DNA from: Ignavibacterium sp.
GTDB lineage: Bacteria > Bacteroidota > Ignavibacteria > Ignavibacteriales > Ignavibacteriaceae
Assembly: GCA_020354005.1 (NCBI GenBank)
Contig: CP070637.1
Coordinates: 2,530,005 to 2,576,573, forward strand
Direction: 5' to 3'
DNA: 46,569 bases
Of the stretch, positions 1,270 to 15,450 are shown piece by piece; positions within the stretch are counted from its first letter, which is position 1, and each line of letters starts with the position of its first letter. Position numbers and translations under genes: made by a program. A model generated the notes under the pieces. It saw only the letters and a program-made list of their open reading frames with translations, made no database searches and was not told where the DNA came from.

Positions 1270-2418
1270 TTATACCTCTTCGAACACTAGTACTTCCTGC
1301 TTCTTTTTAGGTGCAGCTTTCTTTTTCGTTTTTGATTTTACTTTTTTCTTAGTCTTATAACCGTTGGGATTGTTTTTATCTGCGTAGTTTTTATATGAAT
1401 AAACTTCGTTTTTAAAGTTGCGAAGAATGATTTTCTCTTCATCCATATGTAGAACATAATTAGGATGCAAAGGTATTTTACCGCCGCCGCCCGGAGCATC
1501 GATTACAAAATGAGGTACAGCCAAACCGCTTGTATGTCCGCGAAGGGATTCAGCTATTTTCTGTCCTGTCTCAATTGATGTGCGGAAATGATTTGCACCC
1601 TTTGTTTCATCTGTCATATACATATAATACGGTCGAACCCTTATCTTCAAAAGCATTTGCATTAATTCTTTTACTACTGCCGGATCATCATTAATATCTT
1701 TCATAATAACCATCTGGTTTCCAACAGGAACACCAGCGTCACTTAACATCTCACAAGCTTTTGAACTTTCAGATGTAATTTCCCATGGATGGTTAAAGTG
1801 TGTATTAACATAAACAGGGTGATACTTCTTTATCATGTTGCAAAGCTTTTGTGTAATTCTTTGCGGAAGAACAACCGGCATTCGTGTTCCAAGCCGAATG
1901 ATTTCAATGTGCTTCATACTCCGCAGCCGCTGTAGTATCTTTTCAAGCATTGCATCGGTTAACATAAGCGGGTCTCCGCCAGAGAGAATAATATCCCTAA
2001 TCTCGGTATGCTCTTCAAGATATTTAAAAGCTGATTCCAATCCTTTCATTGATATCTTTTCGTAATCGCCAACCTTTCTTTTTCGAGTACAGAACCTGCA
2101 GTAAATACCGCACTGACTTGTAACAAGAAATAGGGCACGGTCGGGATACCTATGAGTAATATTTGGAACGGGACTCATAGCTTCTTCCATTAAAGGATCA
2201 TCCAAAGCATCAAAGTCATCAAGCTCAGCTTTGTTGGGTACGACCTGCAGCCAGATGGGATCGCCGGGATAACGAATTAAACTTAGGTAATAAGGATTTA
2301 CGCGTGCCTGGAAAAATTCATCTAGAGCTTCGGCATCCTTTCTATCAATATTAAATTTTTCCACCAGTTCATCAACTGTGTGTACGCTCTCCCTTATTAA
2401 CTTTTGCCACAATTCCAT
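1270..2418 (-). CDS. kamA: Lysine 2,3-aminomutase (radical SAM, PLP), last gene of the ATP-grasp/GNAT operon
   Basis: Converts L-lysine to L-beta-lysine with SAM, a [4Fe-4S] cluster and PLP. The radical SAM motif CxxxCxxC is C103, C107, C110 (SQCGIYCRFCTRKRK). The residues that, in the clostridial enzyme, bind the lysine epsilon-amino group are conserved: D270 in YMTDETKGANHF and D307 in IDAPGGGGKIP. The PLP lysine is K314. These support true lysine specificity rather than glutamate. At 382 residues it is slightly short of the clostridial enzyme. It carries an odd lysine-rich tail (about residues 356-373) before a final acidic EVLVFEEV. Its ATG is 9 nt past the GNAT stop, so the two are co-transcribed. 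Transcription ends at the 1219-1253 hairpin. Confidence 0.93.
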   Translation of the reverse strand: MELWQKLIRESVHTVDELVEKFNIDRKDAEALDEFFQARVNPYYLSLIRYPGDPIWLQVVPNKAELDDFDALDDPLMEEAMSPVPNITHRYPDRALFLVTSQCGIYCRFCTRKRKVGDYEKISMKGLESAFKYLEEHTEIRDIILSGGDPLMLTDAMLEKILQRLRSMKHIEIIRLGTRMPVVLPQRITQKLCNMIKKYHPVYVNTHFNHPWEITSESSKACEMLSDAGVPVGNQMVIMKDINDDPAVVKELMQMLLKIRVRPYYMYMTDETKGANHFRTSIETGQKIAESLRGHTSGLAVPHFVIDAPGGGGKIPLHPNYVLHMDEEKIILRNFKNEVYSYKNYADKNNPNGYKTKKKVKSKTKKKAAPKKKQEVLVFEEV

Positions 2419-2427
2419 AGCGGCTCC

Positions 2428-2910
2428 TTAGTTTTGCTGATTGTTAAAGTATTTTCCAAAAGTTATTAACATATCCCCACGTGCATAAAAATCTTTTATT
2501 TCGGAAACAATGCTGTATTTATTTCTTAAATAGAAATTTCTTGTTCCTTCATAATCATCTTTTGAAGAAGTTTCAATCAACAACCATCTTCCATTATTTT
2601 CTAAAACAAATTGCTCAGCATGTTCAATTAAAATTTTGCCAATACCTCTATCCCTATAATCCGGATCGGTTACAATCCAATACAAATCGTAAACAGCATC
2701 AGTTAAAGGACGTTTACCGGTACAATGATATCCAAGGACATTATCATCATTTGTGTAAACAAAAACATTATAATCGGTTTGTTCCGGATCTGAAGCAGCA
2801 ACATTCACTAATTCCATTGCCACCTTTACTTCTTCTTCCTTAAAAAGAACCACCTTTTTAAGAATAGACTCAATTACAGGTGCATCATCCGGCTTTAACT
2901 TGCGTATCAT
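2428..2910 (-). CDS. GNAT-family N-acetyltransferase in the beta-lysine/ATP-grasp operon
   Basis: A 160-residue single-domain GNAT protein. The acetyl-CoA pyrophosphate loop is RDRGIGK (residues 86-92) within VTDPDYRDRGIGKILIEHAE, and the C-terminal GTRNFYLRNKY segment is the typical GNAT motif B. It overlaps the upstream ATP-grasp gene by 26 nt and is followed 9 nt later by kamA. By context it could acetylate beta-lysine (as AblB does to make the osmolyte N-epsilon-acetyl-beta-lysine) or an amine of a ligated product. It is shorter than I recall for AblB and I cannot assign the substrate. The GNAT fold call is secure; the acceptor is inference. Confidence 0.85.
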   Translation of the reverse strand: MIRKLKPDDAPVIESILKKVVLFKEEEVKVAMELVNVAASDPEQTDYNVFVYTNDDNVLGYHCTGKRPLTDAVYDLYWIVTDPDYRDRGIGKILIEHAEQFVLENNGRWLLIETSSKDDYEGTRNFYLRNKYSIVSEIKDFYARGDMLITFGKYFNNQQN

Positions 2911-3949
2911 TTTTTTGTTTTCTTTCTAATGCAAAATTTGCAATTGTAAAAAGTAATTCTTCATGAATTATGCCATCTGCTAATGCAGCTCTGGCAAAAC
3001 CAGAGTCGGTTGAAATATCTGGATTAGGATTAACCTCAATTACATATGGAACACCTCTTTTACCCAGTCTGATGTCTATCCTTGCATAATCACGGCAACC
3101 TAAAGCATCAAATGCAGATAGTGCTACTTTTTCAATTCTTTTAAGTGTTCTATCATTAATTTTTGTTGGGCAAACAGGTTTTGTGTGATTGTAATAAACA
3201 CTTTTTTCAATCCACTTTCCATCGTAAGTAACAATCTTTGGAAGTTTTGCTGGCAAACCATGAAAATCTATTTCGGAAACAGGAAGAATGCGATTACCAA
3301 GGATTGCAACATTTAACTCTCTTCCTTCAATATATTCTTCAAGAATTATTTCCTGTTTATATGTATCTGATAAAAAGTTAAAGTGTTTTCTCAACTCTGT
3401 ATAATTATTTACAACAGAAAATTCAGAAATACCGATACTGGCATCTTCTTTTAATAATTTAAGAATTACAGGATAGTTTAGATCAATATCCTTTTGTGTG
3501 AACCTGGCATTTGGTGCTAACTTTAAATAATTAGGAGTTGCAATGCCAAAGGATTGAAGGATATCCTTTGTTCTTGCTTTATCCAGACAATTTCCTAATG
3601 AAATTGCCTGGCAGCCAGTGTATTCAACTGCGAGAAGTTCGAATAATCCAGCCATGCAATATTCGTAAGCTGTAATGCCCTCAACGGATTCAACAAAATT
3701 AAATATGATATCAGGTTTGTAAGAATTAATTCCATCTATTGCTTTTTGAACTTCTCGATCGATTGCTAATGTTTCAACCTGCGTATATTTTTTCTTTAAT
3801 GTTCGTTTGATGATGTTTAATTCTTTCAGAAAACTTTTTTCGGAAAGATCATCACCCTGATTAACTTCTTTAACCGGTTTACCGTTGTATACAGAAAAAA
3901 TACTAACTGGCGAATTAAAACAGATTAATATTTTGGTATCGATCTTCAT
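2885..3949 (-). CDS. ATP-grasp ligase (D-Ala-D-Ala ligase-like), second of a tandem pair
   Basis: A 354-residue ATP-grasp protein of the Ddl fold. ATP-dependent carboxylate-amine ligases of this fold form amide or peptide bonds via an acyl phosphate. The C-terminal metal-binding signature is visible: D292 in YARIDIRLG, and E305 with N307 in VIEVNPNPDIS. The ILEEYIEGRELNVAILG segment (about 202-218) is typical of the ATP-binding core. CLDKARTKDIL (about 121-131) matches the same region of its neighbour, so the two look like diverged paralogs. Its ATG overlaps the upstream ligase stop by 4 nt (ATGA) and its end overlaps the GNAT gene by 26 nt. A housekeeping Ddl role is unlikely given the tandem arrangement and the kamA/GNAT partners. 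Substrates are unknown. Confidence 0.85.
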   Translation of the reverse strand: MKIDTKILICFNSPVSIFSVYNGKPVKEVNQGDDLSEKSFLKELNIIKRTLKKKYTQVETLAIDREVQKAIDGINSYKPDIIFNFVESVEGITAYEYCMAGLFELLAVEYTGCQAISLGNCLDKARTKDILQSFGIATPNYLKLAPNARFTQKDIDLNYPVILKLLKEDASIGISEFSVVNNYTELRKHFNFLSDTYKQEIILEEYIEGRELNVAILGNRILPVSEIDFHGLPAKLPKIVTYDGKWIEKSVYYNHTKPVCPTKINDRTLKRIEKVALSAFDALGCRDYARIDIRLGKRGVPYVIEVNPNPDISTDSGFARAALADGIIHEELLFTIANFALERKQKNDTQVKAG

Positions 3950-5028
3950 AAAAGATTATTTCTCTTACAAGCAGAGTATAAAACAGTTTGTATCAAACTT
4001 TTATAGTCAATTCCGGCAGCACGTGCGGCTTTTGGTAAACTTGAATTTTCATTCGGATCCGGCATAATACCCGGCAAAGGATTAATCTCAATAATATTTG
4101 GCACTTCATTTTTATCTAACCTGACATCGACACGGCTCCAATCTTTACAACCTAACACTTTATACGTACTTAATGCTGTATCCCTAATTTGCTTCTCCAA
4201 ATCATCATCAAGAGATGCAGGGCAATCAAACACATCGAAGTCACTTTCTTTAGTATCAAGTATCCACTTTGCTTCGAATGAATATAAATGTTCAACATCA
4301 TCAGGATATTTATCATACTTAATTTCAATTATTGGAAGAACTTTTGTCTCTTCATCGTTACCAATAATAGCAACTGTAAATTCCCTTCCCGGTAAAAATT
4401 CTTCTATCATTGCTGGCTGGTCGTATTCATTAATGCAGCGCTTTAACTCTCGATTTAAATCATCATAATTTTTAACAAGTGACGAACTAAATATTCCTTT
4501 GCTTGATCCTTCAGAAACCGGTTTAACGATTAATGGAAATTCAAATGAATGATTATAAATCGGTGTATAACTATTAATAACTTTAAATCCCGGTGTTGGT
4601 ATTTTATGATAAGATAAAATTTCCTTTGTTCTTGCTTTATTAAGACAAATCCCTAGGGTTAATACATCGGAACCAGTATAAGGAATTTGCAACATATCTA
4701 ACATTGCAGGAATCTGAGATTCTCTGCTTTGTCCATTTATTCCTTCTGCAATATTAAAAACGATATTAGGTTTAATTTTTTTTAATTTTTTAAAAGCATG
4801 TTCATCTGCATCAATAAGAGTTACATCATGATAATCTTCAATTGATTCTTTTATTGCATTAATTGTTTCCATTGTATCCCATTCAGCATAAGTATCAAAT
4901 CCATATTTTGTGTCTTTATCAAAGTGGGTTTGAATAGGTGGTAGGTCTTCGGGGAAAGTTTCACTTTCTGGTTTTACGTTGCAAGTTATAGCAACATTTA
5001 ATCGCTGTTTAAAAGTTTTTGATAAAAT
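3946..5028 (-). CDS. ATP-grasp ligase (D-Ala-D-Ala ligase-like), first gene of the operon, probable ATT start
   Basis: Ddl-fold ATP-grasp ligase. Starting at the first ATG (4872) gives 308 residues and lacks the first Rossmann-like strand. The frame stays open upstream to a TGA at 5053-5055. The extra codons read like a true Ddl N-terminus (LNVAITCNVKPESETFPEDL, then a Y-A-E-W-D-T-M-E-T segment). No ATG, GTG or TTG lies in that stretch, and the best candidate is an ATT at 5026-5028 preceded by GAAAGAAAAAAA. That yields 360 residues, matching its 354-residue paralog. Core motifs: IVKPVSEGSSKGI, MIEEFLPGREFTVAIIG, and IIEINPLPGI with the metal-binding E and N. It is followed with a 4-nt overlap by the second ligase. 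The family is secure; the start is inference. Confidence 0.8.
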   Translation of the reverse strand: MLSKTFKQRLNVAITCNVKPESETFPEDLPPIQTHFDKDTKYGFDTYAEWDTMETINAIKESIEDYHDVTLIDADEHAFKKLKKIKPNIVFNIAEGINGQSRESQIPAMLDMLQIPYTGSDVLTLGICLNKARTKEILSYHKIPTPGFKVINSYTPIYNHSFEFPLIVKPVSEGSSKGIFSSSLVKNYDDLNRELKRCINEYDQPAMIEEFLPGREFTVAIIGNDEETKVLPIIEIKYDKYPDDVEHLYSFEAKWILDTKESDFDVFDCPASLDDDLEKQIRDTALSTYKVLGCKDWSRVDVRLDKNEVPNIIEINPLPGIMPDPNENSSLPKAARAAGIDYKSLIQTVLYSACKRNNLL

Positions 5029-13587: not shown

Positions 13588-13752
13588 ATGTCAAAATCAC
13601 AATCATTTGCAGATAAATCGAAGGCCAAAAAAAAGGCTGATCATATAACGGTTAAACTAGTAAAATCTGTTAAATCGGAAAAAGGAACTTATAAATTCAA
13701 TGAAAAATATGTTCGATTAGCAGATATTAGTAAAGTAACTGAATTAAAGTAA
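13588..13752 (+). CDS. Small basic protein, 54 aa, possibly ribosome-associated (DUF4295-like)
   Basis: Encodes 54 residues beginning MSKSQSFADKSKAKKKADHI and ending with the block TYKFNEKYVRLADISKVTEL. It is very lysine-rich. Evidence that it is real: ATG with AAGGAA 7 nt upstream, a consensus promoter at 13532-13562, and a strong terminator 14 nt after the stop. The 'VKLVKSVKSEKGTYKFNEKYV' type pattern (basic strand, KxGxYxF, EKxV) resembles from memory the short DUF4295 proteins encoded near bL28/bL33 genes in Bacteroidota. That resemblance is unverified, and no ribosomal protein gene is adjacent here. Compact basic character and strong signals suggest high expression. Confidence 0.75.
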   Translation: MSKSQSFADKSKAKKKADHITVKLVKSVKSEKGTYKFNEKYVRLADISKVTELK

Positions 13753-13765
13753 TAACCTTCATTTT

Positions 13766-13789
13766 AAGCGGTTTTTGCCGCTTTTTTTA
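13766..13789 (+). terminator. Rho-independent terminator of the small basic gene
   Basis: AAGCGG (13766-13771), loop TTTTTG, CCGCTT (13778-13783), then a run of T to 13788. A classical intrinsic terminator directly after the 54-residue gene. Confidence 0.88.
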
Positions 13790-13994: not shown

Positions 13995-15395
13995 ATGTTT
14001 AGAGTGATTTCTCATAAAAAAATGAAATTCTATGGGTTGAGGGATTTAGATAACATTCCTCAACTTCAAAATTTATCCGCTGATCAACGCTTTGCCATTA
14101 AAGTTGTTTCTTCAGTTCTTCCTTTCCGTGTGAATAATTATATAATAGAAGAACTTATTGACTGGGATAATGTGCCCGAAGATCCAATCTTCCAACTGAC
14201 ATTTATGCAAAAGGAAATGCTTTCAGATGATCAGTTCAGAAGGATGGCATTTACATTAAGTAATAATCATACCTTTGAAGAAATTCAAAGTGCTGCAGAG
14301 GATATTAGGCTTGAATTAAATCCACATCCTGCTGGGCAAATGACTTTAAATGTTCCTTTAATGTTTGATGAGCCTGTAAAAGGTGTTCAGCATAAATACA
14401 GGGAAACTGTTCTTATTTTTCCTTCAAGTGGGCAGACCTGCCATTCATATTGTACATTCTGTTTTAGATGGGCGCAGTTCGTTGGAATGAATGACCTTAA
14501 ATTTGCAACCGATGAGGCAAAGAGTTTTCAGGATTATTTAGCAGCTAATAAAGGTGTTACTGATTTATTGTTAACTGGTGGAGATCCGATGATAATGAGT
14601 GCCAGAAATCTTGCAGCATACATTGAACCGTTTCTTGAGTCAGAATTTGAACATATTCGAAATATTAGGATTGGAACAAAGTCCGTTGCATACTGGCCAT
14701 ACAAATTTGTTACTGATAAAGATGCTGATGATACACTAAGGCTGTTTGAGAGAGTAGTAAATTCAGGTAAGCACCTTGCAATCATGGGCCATTACAATCA
14801 TTGGAAAGAATTATCTACGGATGTTGCTCAGGAAGCCATCAGAAGAATCAGAAGCACGGGCGCCCAAATAAGAACTCAATCGCCGTTAGTAAAAAATGTT
14901 AACGATTCACCTGATGTCTGGGCAAGAATGTGGAAAGAACAAGTTAAGCTTGGGTGCATACCTTACTACTTTTTTGTTGAAAGAAATACCGGTGCAAAAA
15001 ATTATTTTTCAATCCCGCTTTACAAAGCTTATCAGATTTATAGAGAAGCATATCAGGAACTCTCCGGACTTAGCCGAACTGTAAGGGGTCCGTCAATGTC
15101 AGCTCTTCCGGGTAAGGTATCAATTGAAGGAGTAACCCAAATTAATGGTGAAAAAGTATTTGTGTTAACTCTATTGCAGGCAAGGAATCCTGAGTGGGTT
15201 AAAAAACCATTCTTTGCTAAGTACAGTGAAAAAGCTACCTGGCTAACTGATTTAAGGCCTGCATTCGGTAGAGATAAATTCTTTTATCAAGATGAACTAA
15301 ACCAAATGATAAGAGCAAACAACGGGCAGTTCTATTTTAATCGTAGCGAAGATTATGAAATGATTGAGAATACTTCTTTTGATGCGGATGAATAA
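13995..15395 (+). CDS. KamA-family radical SAM protein with altered substrate pocket
   Basis: A 466-residue homolog of lysine 2,3-aminomutase. The SAM cluster motif is C149, C153, C156 (GQTCHSYCTFCFRW), followed by LLLTGGDPMIM and a MGHYNHWKEL segment matching THFNHPWEI of KamA. Aligning with the kamA product of this window, the first lysine-binding aspartate becomes R330 (VERNTGAKNYF). The second becomes S367, seven residues before the likely PLP lysine K374 (PSMSALPGK). So lysine is an unlikely substrate; an acidic amino acid is possible, as in glutamate 2,3-aminomutase where basic and amide residues occupy these sites. The ATG at 13995 has GGAG only 1 nt away; an ATG at 14022 (MKFYGLRDLDN) is a credible alternative. 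Monocistronic, ending at 15420-15450. Confidence 0.88.
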   Translation: MFRVISHKKMKFYGLRDLDNIPQLQNLSADQRFAIKVVSSVLPFRVNNYIIEELIDWDNVPEDPIFQLTFMQKEMLSDDQFRRMAFTLSNNHTFEEIQSAAEDIRLELNPHPAGQMTLNVPLMFDEPVKGVQHKYRETVLIFPSSGQTCHSYCTFCFRWAQFVGMNDLKFATDEAKSFQDYLAANKGVTDLLLTGGDPMIMSARNLAAYIEPFLESEFEHIRNIRIGTKSVAYWPYKFVTDKDADDTLRLFERVVNSGKHLAIMGHYNHWKELSTDVAQEAIRRIRSTGAQIRTQSPLVKNVNDSPDVWARMWKEQVKLGCIPYYFFVERNTGAKNYFSIPLYKAYQIYREAYQELSGLSRTVRGPSMSALPGKVSIEGVTQINGEKVFVLTLLQARNPEWVKKPFFAKYSEKATWLTDLRPAFGRDKFFYQDELNQMIRANNGQFYFNRSEDYEMIENTSFDADE

Positions 15396-15419
15396 AGAAG
15401 CGAATTTCTTACTCTAAAG

Positions 15420-15450
15420 TGCTTTGATACTGGATATCAAAGCATTTTTT
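15420..15450 (+). terminator. Rho-independent terminator of the second KamA-family gene
   Basis: TGCTTTGATA (15420-15429) and TATCAAAGCA (15435-15444) form a perfect 10-bp stem with a CTGGA loop, followed by six T. On the minus strand no T-run follows, so it acts on the plus-strand gene only. Confidence 0.9.

What the first reader, a model, noticed from the sequence alone, without database searches (positions are those of the whole stretch)
13995..15395. Second KamA-family enzyme with the lysine-binding aspartates replaced by Arg and Ser
Within 13 kb there are two KamA-fold enzymes. This one keeps the CxxxCxxC cluster and a likely PLP lysine (K374), but the positions of D270 and D307 of the first enzyme are R330 and S367 here. 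In glutamate 2,3-aminomutase these sites are also changed (lysine and asparagine), so an anionic substrate is plausible. The C-terminal part after the PLP lysine is also unlike KamA. It is a lone gene with its own terminator, so context does not give the substrate.
Basis: partly seen in the sequence, partly recalled or inferred. Interest (0 to 1): 0.6.

Follow-up and report, generated by a model that had tools for sequence, protein, structure and literature searches.

The report
Probable glutamate 2,3-aminomutase, IdnL4-type
The gene probably encodes a radical enzyme that moves the amino group of glutamate to make beta-glutamate, a salt-protecting compound abundant in the sea, and it belongs to a large, biochemically almost unstudied clade found in bacteria, on an archaeal contig and in marine phages.

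Summary
Window 13995-15395 (+) encodes a 466-aa KamA-fold radical-SAM/PLP protein with C149/C153/C156, K374, and Arg330/Ser367 where LAM has Asp293/Asp330. In 75 family members Arg330 and Lys374 are invariant; position 367 is Ser (65) or Val (10), never acidic. The AlphaFold2 model matches lysine 2,3-aminomutase 2a5h far above all other structures (Z 30.9 against 13.1).

The protein lies on a long, fully supported branch away from LAM and scores below every NCBIfam KamA cut-off. Window context gives no substrate, but relatives do. A 52%-identical Streptomyces homologue sits in a polyketide cluster beside a PLP enzyme, an adenylation enzyme closest to IdnL1 and a VinJ-like hydrolase. In that pathway IdnL4 is the assigned glutamate 2,3-aminomutase (knockout and feeding; in vitro activity not observed). 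Best reading: glutamate to beta-glutamate.

The family also occurs on a TFB-bearing archaeal contig and in at least five marine T4-like phage contigs. Beta-glutamate is the most abundant identified metabolite of Nitrosopumilus maritimus, so an osmolyte role is plausible but unproven. Glutamate substrate about 0.6; osmolyte role about 0.3. No assay or IdnL4 sequence comparison could be made.

The parts
13995..15395 (+). CDS, 466 aa: putative glutamate 2,3-aminomutase (radical SAM + PLP), IdnL4-type clade
   Evidence: family alignment; fold match to 2a5h
14439..14462 (+). codons of C149-x3-C153-x2-C156, the [4Fe-4S]/SAM motif
   Evidence: sequence; invariant in 75/75
14466..14468 (+). codon of R158, opposite R134 of LAM (alpha-carboxylate Arg, from knowledge of the LAM structure)
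   Evidence: phmmer alignment; 75/75
14982..14984 (+). codon of R330, opposite D293 of LAM
15093..15095 (+). codon of S367, opposite D330 of LAM by spacing to the lysine
   Evidence: 65 Ser, 10 Val; register not settled by structure
15114..15116 (+). codon of K374, likely PLP lysine (K337 of LAM)
   Evidence: 75/75
15416..15448 (+). intrinsic-terminator-like hairpin after the gene
1270..2418 (-). first KamA-type protein (LAM-like, both Asp kept), for comparison; not part of the same unit

Best explanation
The gene encodes a radical-SAM, PLP-dependent 2,3-aminomutase that converts L-glutamate to beta-glutamate. SAM is cleaved at the cluster held by C149/C153/C156, and the 5'-deoxyadenosyl radical removes a hydrogen from C3 of the substrate held as aldimine on PLP (K374). 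R158 holds the alpha-carboxylate and R330 takes the gamma-carboxylate in place of the two aspartates that hold the lysine amino group in LAM. Shown: fold, motifs, residue replacement, invariance, clade, and gene context in Streptomyces. Inferred: substrate, role of R330, and use of the product. The product is most plausibly a compatible solute in this and other mostly free-living bacteria, and a polyketide starter precursor in actinomycetes.
For: LAM fold (Z 30.9 to 2a5h, next unrelated fold 13.1). R330, R158 and K374 invariant across about ten phyla. Streptomyces homologue, 52% identical over 417 residues, in a type I PKS cluster, followed by a PLP enzyme, with an adenylation protein whose best solved relative is IdnL1 (5jjq, 618.7 bits, against 571.8 for CmiS6) and a hydrolase closest to 3wmr (VinJ). 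Review: beta-glutamate is the fed intermediate, IdnL3 decarboxylates it, and disruption of idnL4 confirmed its part in 3-aminobutyrate supply (PMC11284099). The same PLP-enzyme neighbour occurs in Amycolatopsis (50% identical), and a distant homologue directly follows the gene in two Ignavibacteriales genomes. That homologue's presence goes with this gene in 13 of 14 genomes (Fisher p 0.0005, not corrected for descent).
Against: IdnL4 activity was never observed in vitro (PMC11284099). Actinomycete members could have specialised apart from the Ignavibacteria ones. The window gene is alone. The Rhodococcus homologue sits in a different kind of cluster, so substrates may vary within the clade. 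Second-site register is unsettled.
Confidence: 0.6

Rival explanations
1. It is a 2,3-aminomutase for another amino acid with an anionic or neutral side chain, different from one sub-clade to the next.
For: Rhodococcus, NRPS-linked and PKS-linked homologues sit in different biosynthetic contexts; position 367 varies Ser/Val.
Against: R330 and the surrounding pocket motif (PYYxF, RDTG, RTxRGPxMS) are nearly constant over 75 sequences, which suggests one substrate.
Confidence: 0.2
2. It is an alanine 2,3-aminomutase supplying beta-alanine for pantothenate where panD is missing.
For: The window's genome and five congeners have panC but no panD hit.
Against: Eight relatives with panC and without panD also lack this gene, and there is no association (Fisher p 0.38; 0.73 without the genus). 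Invariant R330 has no role for alanine.
Confidence: 0.06
3. It is a lysine 2,3-aminomutase with an unusual pocket.
For: Annotated as such in public plasmid records; LAM fold.
Against: No conserved acid at either amine-binding site; all NCBIfam LAM/EpmB scores far under cut-off (111.9 against 525.4); the genome already holds a LAM-like KamA with both Asp.
Confidence: 0.04
4. It uses the fold for another radical reaction and not an amino shift.
For: Long branch from LAM (3.63 changes per column); extra conserved arginines R293, R361, R364.
Against: The SAM motif, R158 and K374 needed for the amino shift are all invariant, and context in the macrolactam cluster fits an amino shift.
Confidence: 0.1

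Closest known systems
IdnL4 of incednine biosynthesis (assigned glutamate 2,3-aminomutase)
   Same: A 52%-identical homologue occupies the matching place in a macrolactam-type cluster with IdnL1-, VinJ- and PLP-enzyme neighbours.
   Different: The window gene is alone, in an Ignavibacteria-type genome with no PKS beside it; sequence identity to IdnL4 itself could not be measured.
Glutamate 2,3-aminomutase of Clostridioides difficile type (TIGR04368)
   Same: Same proposed reaction, and a basic residue in place of LAM Asp293 (Lys there, from the literature; Arg here).
   Different: 86 bits against a cut-off of 650, while the window's own LAM-like KamA scores 424: TIGR04368 enzymes belong with LAM, this clade does not, so the basic residue probably arose independently.
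Lysine 2,3-aminomutase KamA/AblA (2a5h)
   Same: Fold, SAM cluster motif, PLP lysine, alpha-carboxylate arginine.
   Different: Both aspartates missing; LAM_C not detected by Pfam; about 27% identity over the barrel only.
R-bearing KamA-like proteins of rhizobia and other Proteobacteria (L091, L111-L114)
   Same: Also have Arg at the Asp293 place and mostly an MSxxxGK motif at the lysine.
   Different: Only 27-35% identical; separate branches of the tree; function unknown.

Membership tests
KamA-fold radical SAM 2,3-aminomutases | CxxxCxxC motif, LAM fold, PLP lysine | tested here: met
   (PLP binding itself not testable)
KamA-fold radical SAM 2,3-aminomutases | TIGR00238 KamA family score over 199.2 bits | tested here: not met
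   128.9 bits, E 2e-37: clear relative outside the curated family
Lysine 2,3-aminomutase (AblA/KamA) | Asp293 and Asp330 equivalents | tested here: not met
   R330 75/75; Ser or Val at 367 in 75/75
Lysine 2,3-aminomutase (AblA/KamA) | TIGR03820 score over cut-off | tested here: not met
   111.9 against 525.4
Glutamate 2,3-aminomutase, TIGR04368 type | TIGR04368 score over cut-off | tested here: not met
   86.3 against 650
IdnL4-type glutamate 2,3-aminomutase | one supported clade with members in IdnL1/IdnL3-type clusters | tested here: met
   clade of 66 rows at SH-aLRT 96 holding the Streptomyces, Amycolatopsis and window proteins
IdnL4-type glutamate 2,3-aminomutase | sequence similarity to IdnL4 itself | not testable with these tools
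   the incednine cluster is not in the collections
IdnL4-type glutamate 2,3-aminomutase | converts L-Glu to beta-Glu | not testable with these tools
   needs an anaerobic assay; not observed in vitro even for IdnL4 (PMC11284099)

The most novel reading that the evidence does not exclude
The clade is the main, so far unassigned, beta-glutamate synthase of free-living and marine microbes. It occurs in Ignavibacteria, Nitrospinota, Planctomycetota, Oceanospirillaceae, Campylobacterota and an archaeal contig, and marine T4-like phages carry it as an auxiliary metabolic gene. It would explain the 730 mM beta-glutamate of Nitrosopumilus and its rise with ocean depth.
Probability: 0.3. Interest if true: 0.75.

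Novelty: new variant of a known kind. Interest (0 to 1): 0.55.

Why it matters
Beta-glutamate is a major osmolyte in methanogens and the most abundant identified metabolite of Nitrosopumilus maritimus (PMC8269262), while a 2005 review reported that a glutamate aminomutase route had been ruled out by early NMR work in methanogens and left the pathway open (PMC1224877). A widespread clade with one genetically supported member makes the source of beta-glutamate testable with one assay and one knockout. Public records call these proteins lysine 2,3-aminomutase, which is probably wrong for the whole clade.

Tried and rejected
Alanine/beta-alanine role: no association with absence of panD. Conserved neighbours: none across phyla; the single ATP-grasp protein two genes downstream in a Pirellulales contig (L040) was judged coincidental. 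Fragment fold (118-369) to fix the second-site register: the end residue fell opposite 328, not 332, at low confidence, so inconclusive. Search for true TIGR04368 members over cut-off in relatives: none, so no direct sequence comparison with C. difficile glutamate aminomutase. Phage reference genomes: only distant KamA. Reading Nitrosopumilus genomes: no route with the tools left; TFB and homologue re-searches in viral contigs returned only the same contig. Literature search for the gene as a phage auxiliary gene turned up nothing on point among the titles seen. The Ruzicka and Frey 2007 paper is not held; its Lys/Asn statement is from my own knowledge and the finding.

Full report
What is there. 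The ORF at 13995-15395 (+) encodes 466 residues. It is isolated between a small ORF with its own terminator and a convergent gene on the other strand, and it has a terminator-like hairpin at 15416-15448. The only solved relative by sequence is lysine 2,3-aminomutase 2a5h. NCBIfam KamA models all match below cut-off; Pfam gives only a weak Radical_SAM hit and no LAM_C.

Residues. Four anchors (PYY, Phe338, SG358, Lys374) share an offset of 37 to LAM numbering, which puts R330 on D293 and S367 on D330. phmmer prefers E329 on D293 with two compensating gaps, but intermediate sequences from Proteobacteria read PYYLFQCR where LAM reads PYYIYQCD, which settles the first site in favour of R330. In 75 non-identical family members, C149, C153, C156, R158, H133, Q295, N303, R330 and K374 are invariant; E329 is 64/75 Glu; position 367 is Ser 65, Val 10; R361 and R364 are almost always Arg. 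The 11 LAM-type sequences have Asp at both sites. No conserved acid exists in 359-374, so the second amine site is lost in any register.

Structure. AF2 with 38 family members gave mean pLDDT 85.6. VIA-align puts 2a5h at Z 30.9 over 322 residues (rmsd 3.7), model 3-401 on chain 13-390; the next fold is viperin at 13.1. A fragment ending at 369 aligned 223 residues at rmsd 2.2 (Z 22.5), but its last residue fell opposite 328 instead of 332; the end of that model has low pLDDT, so I take it as inconclusive.

Family and tree. Members at roughly 50-79% identity occur in Ignavibacteriota, Bacteroidota, Nitrospinota, Planctomycetota, Gemmatimonadota, Armatimonadota, Bdellovibrionota, Campylobacterota, Pseudomonadota and Actinomycetota. 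Within the window's phylum sample 34 of 296 genomes carry it; in the phylum of the Marinobacterium locus (Pseudomonadota), 16 of 200 passed E 1e-40, of which 10 score as full-length family members. A maximum-likelihood tree puts the 67 family rows on a branch of length 3.63 with full support, apart from LAM-type KamA, with actinomycete, phage and archaeal members inside. The window's own KamA1 scores 424 on the C. difficile-type glutamate aminomutase model and this protein only 86. So that glutamate enzyme belongs with LAM, and a basic residue at the Asp293 place probably arose more than once.

Substrate from context. Most of the argument comes from a Streptomyces plasmid (L087). There the homologue (52% identity, R330 kept) lies among type I PKS genes, between a hydrolase whose best solved relative is 3wmr (named proline iminopeptidase in the PDB; that this entry is VinJ is from memory) and a PLP enzyme of aminotransferase class I/II. 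Next follows an adenylation protein closest to 5jjq, which is IdnL1, selective for (S)-3-aminobutyrate. In incednine biosynthesis beta-glutamate is the intermediate shown by feeding, IdnL3 (PLP) decarboxylates it, and IdnL4, a radical SAM protein, is assigned by gene disruption to glutamate 2,3-aminomutation, though its activity was not seen in vitro (PMC11284099); genome mining uses IdnL4 plus IdnL3 as the mark of such clusters (PMC10662134). Amycolatopsis sp. AA4 has the same pair (PLP enzymes 50% identical). A distant homologue of the PLP enzyme (33%) directly follows the gene in two Ignavibacteriales genomes, in one of them within a run that goes on with a GNAT-nitrilase and an MscS channel. 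In 59 relatives that PLP protein occurs in 14 genomes, 13 of which have the aminomutase (p 0.0005; 0.002 with one genome of the own genus; not corrected for descent). It is present, unlinked, in the window's genome. The PLP protein is a generic-looking aminotransferase, so this is a lead only.

Role. Scans of viral contigs found five phage contigs in which the homologue ends 24 bases before a T4-type terminase gene (terminases 89-92% identical to that of L099), and one contig in which it lies beside an archaeal TFB gene. That contig also carries phage-like genes and may be a chimaera; that the archaeon is a marine Nitrososphaerian is my guess from the protein, not tested, and that the phages are marine is inferred from their make-up, not from sample records. 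Beta-glutamate is the most abundant identified metabolite in Nitrosopumilus maritimus, 730 mM, and rises with depth in the sea (PMC8269262). These facts together make a compatible-solute role plausible; none proves it. Early NMR work argued against a glutamate aminomutase in methanogens (PMC1224877).

Rivals. Beta-alanine supply is not supported by the panC/panD pattern. Lysine is unlikely for lack of any acid. A different anionic substrate in part of the clade remains open, given the Rhodococcus cluster with a lysine/ornithine hydroxylase, cupin and tRNA-ligase-like gene.

Verdict. The protein is best filed as a new variant of 2,3-aminomutase: the IdnL4-type clade, probable substrate L-glutamate.

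Noticed in passing
window 1270-4872 (-): The first KamA (LAM-like, both Asp kept) is preceded on the same strand by a GNAT protein and two D-Ala-D-Ala-ligase-like ATP-grasp proteins, a possible pathway for a beta-lysine-containing peptide or derivative.
   Followed up: no
L095-L099 (L099:4995-6263): Five T4-like phage contigs carry a 57-59%-identical homologue directly upstream of the terminase large subunit gene: a likely auxiliary metabolic gene; a sixth contig (L136) holds its end.
   Followed up: partly
L100:3454-5800: Homologue beside an archaeal transcription factor TFB gene on a contig that also has phage-like genes; provirus, chimaera or archaeal chromosome not settled.
   Followed up: partly
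L117:5966-11138: In one Ignavibacteriales genome the aminomutase overlaps a PLP enzyme gene, followed by a GNAT-nitrilase fusion and an MscS channel gene.
   Followed up: partly
L127:7395-10722 and L129:7176-10494: The same PLP enzyme is followed by an acyl-CoA-synthetase gene (acetoacetyl-CoA synthetase-like by eye) in two other genomes, which would fit 3-aminobutyrate metabolism.
   Followed up: no
L089:8928-19991 (Rhodococcus plasmid): Homologue in a cluster with cupin, luciferase-like monooxygenase, SidA/PvdA hydroxylase, class I tRNA-ligase-like and saccharopine-dehydrogenase-like genes, resembling N-N-bond (hydrazine) natural-product clusters.
   Followed up: no
whole genome of the window (G000) and five congeners G001-G005: panC present but no panD hit: another beta-alanine source must exist.
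   Followed up: partly
window 13589-13752 (+): Small Lys-rich ORF of about 54 codons with its own terminator (13766-13783) just upstream.
   Followed up: no
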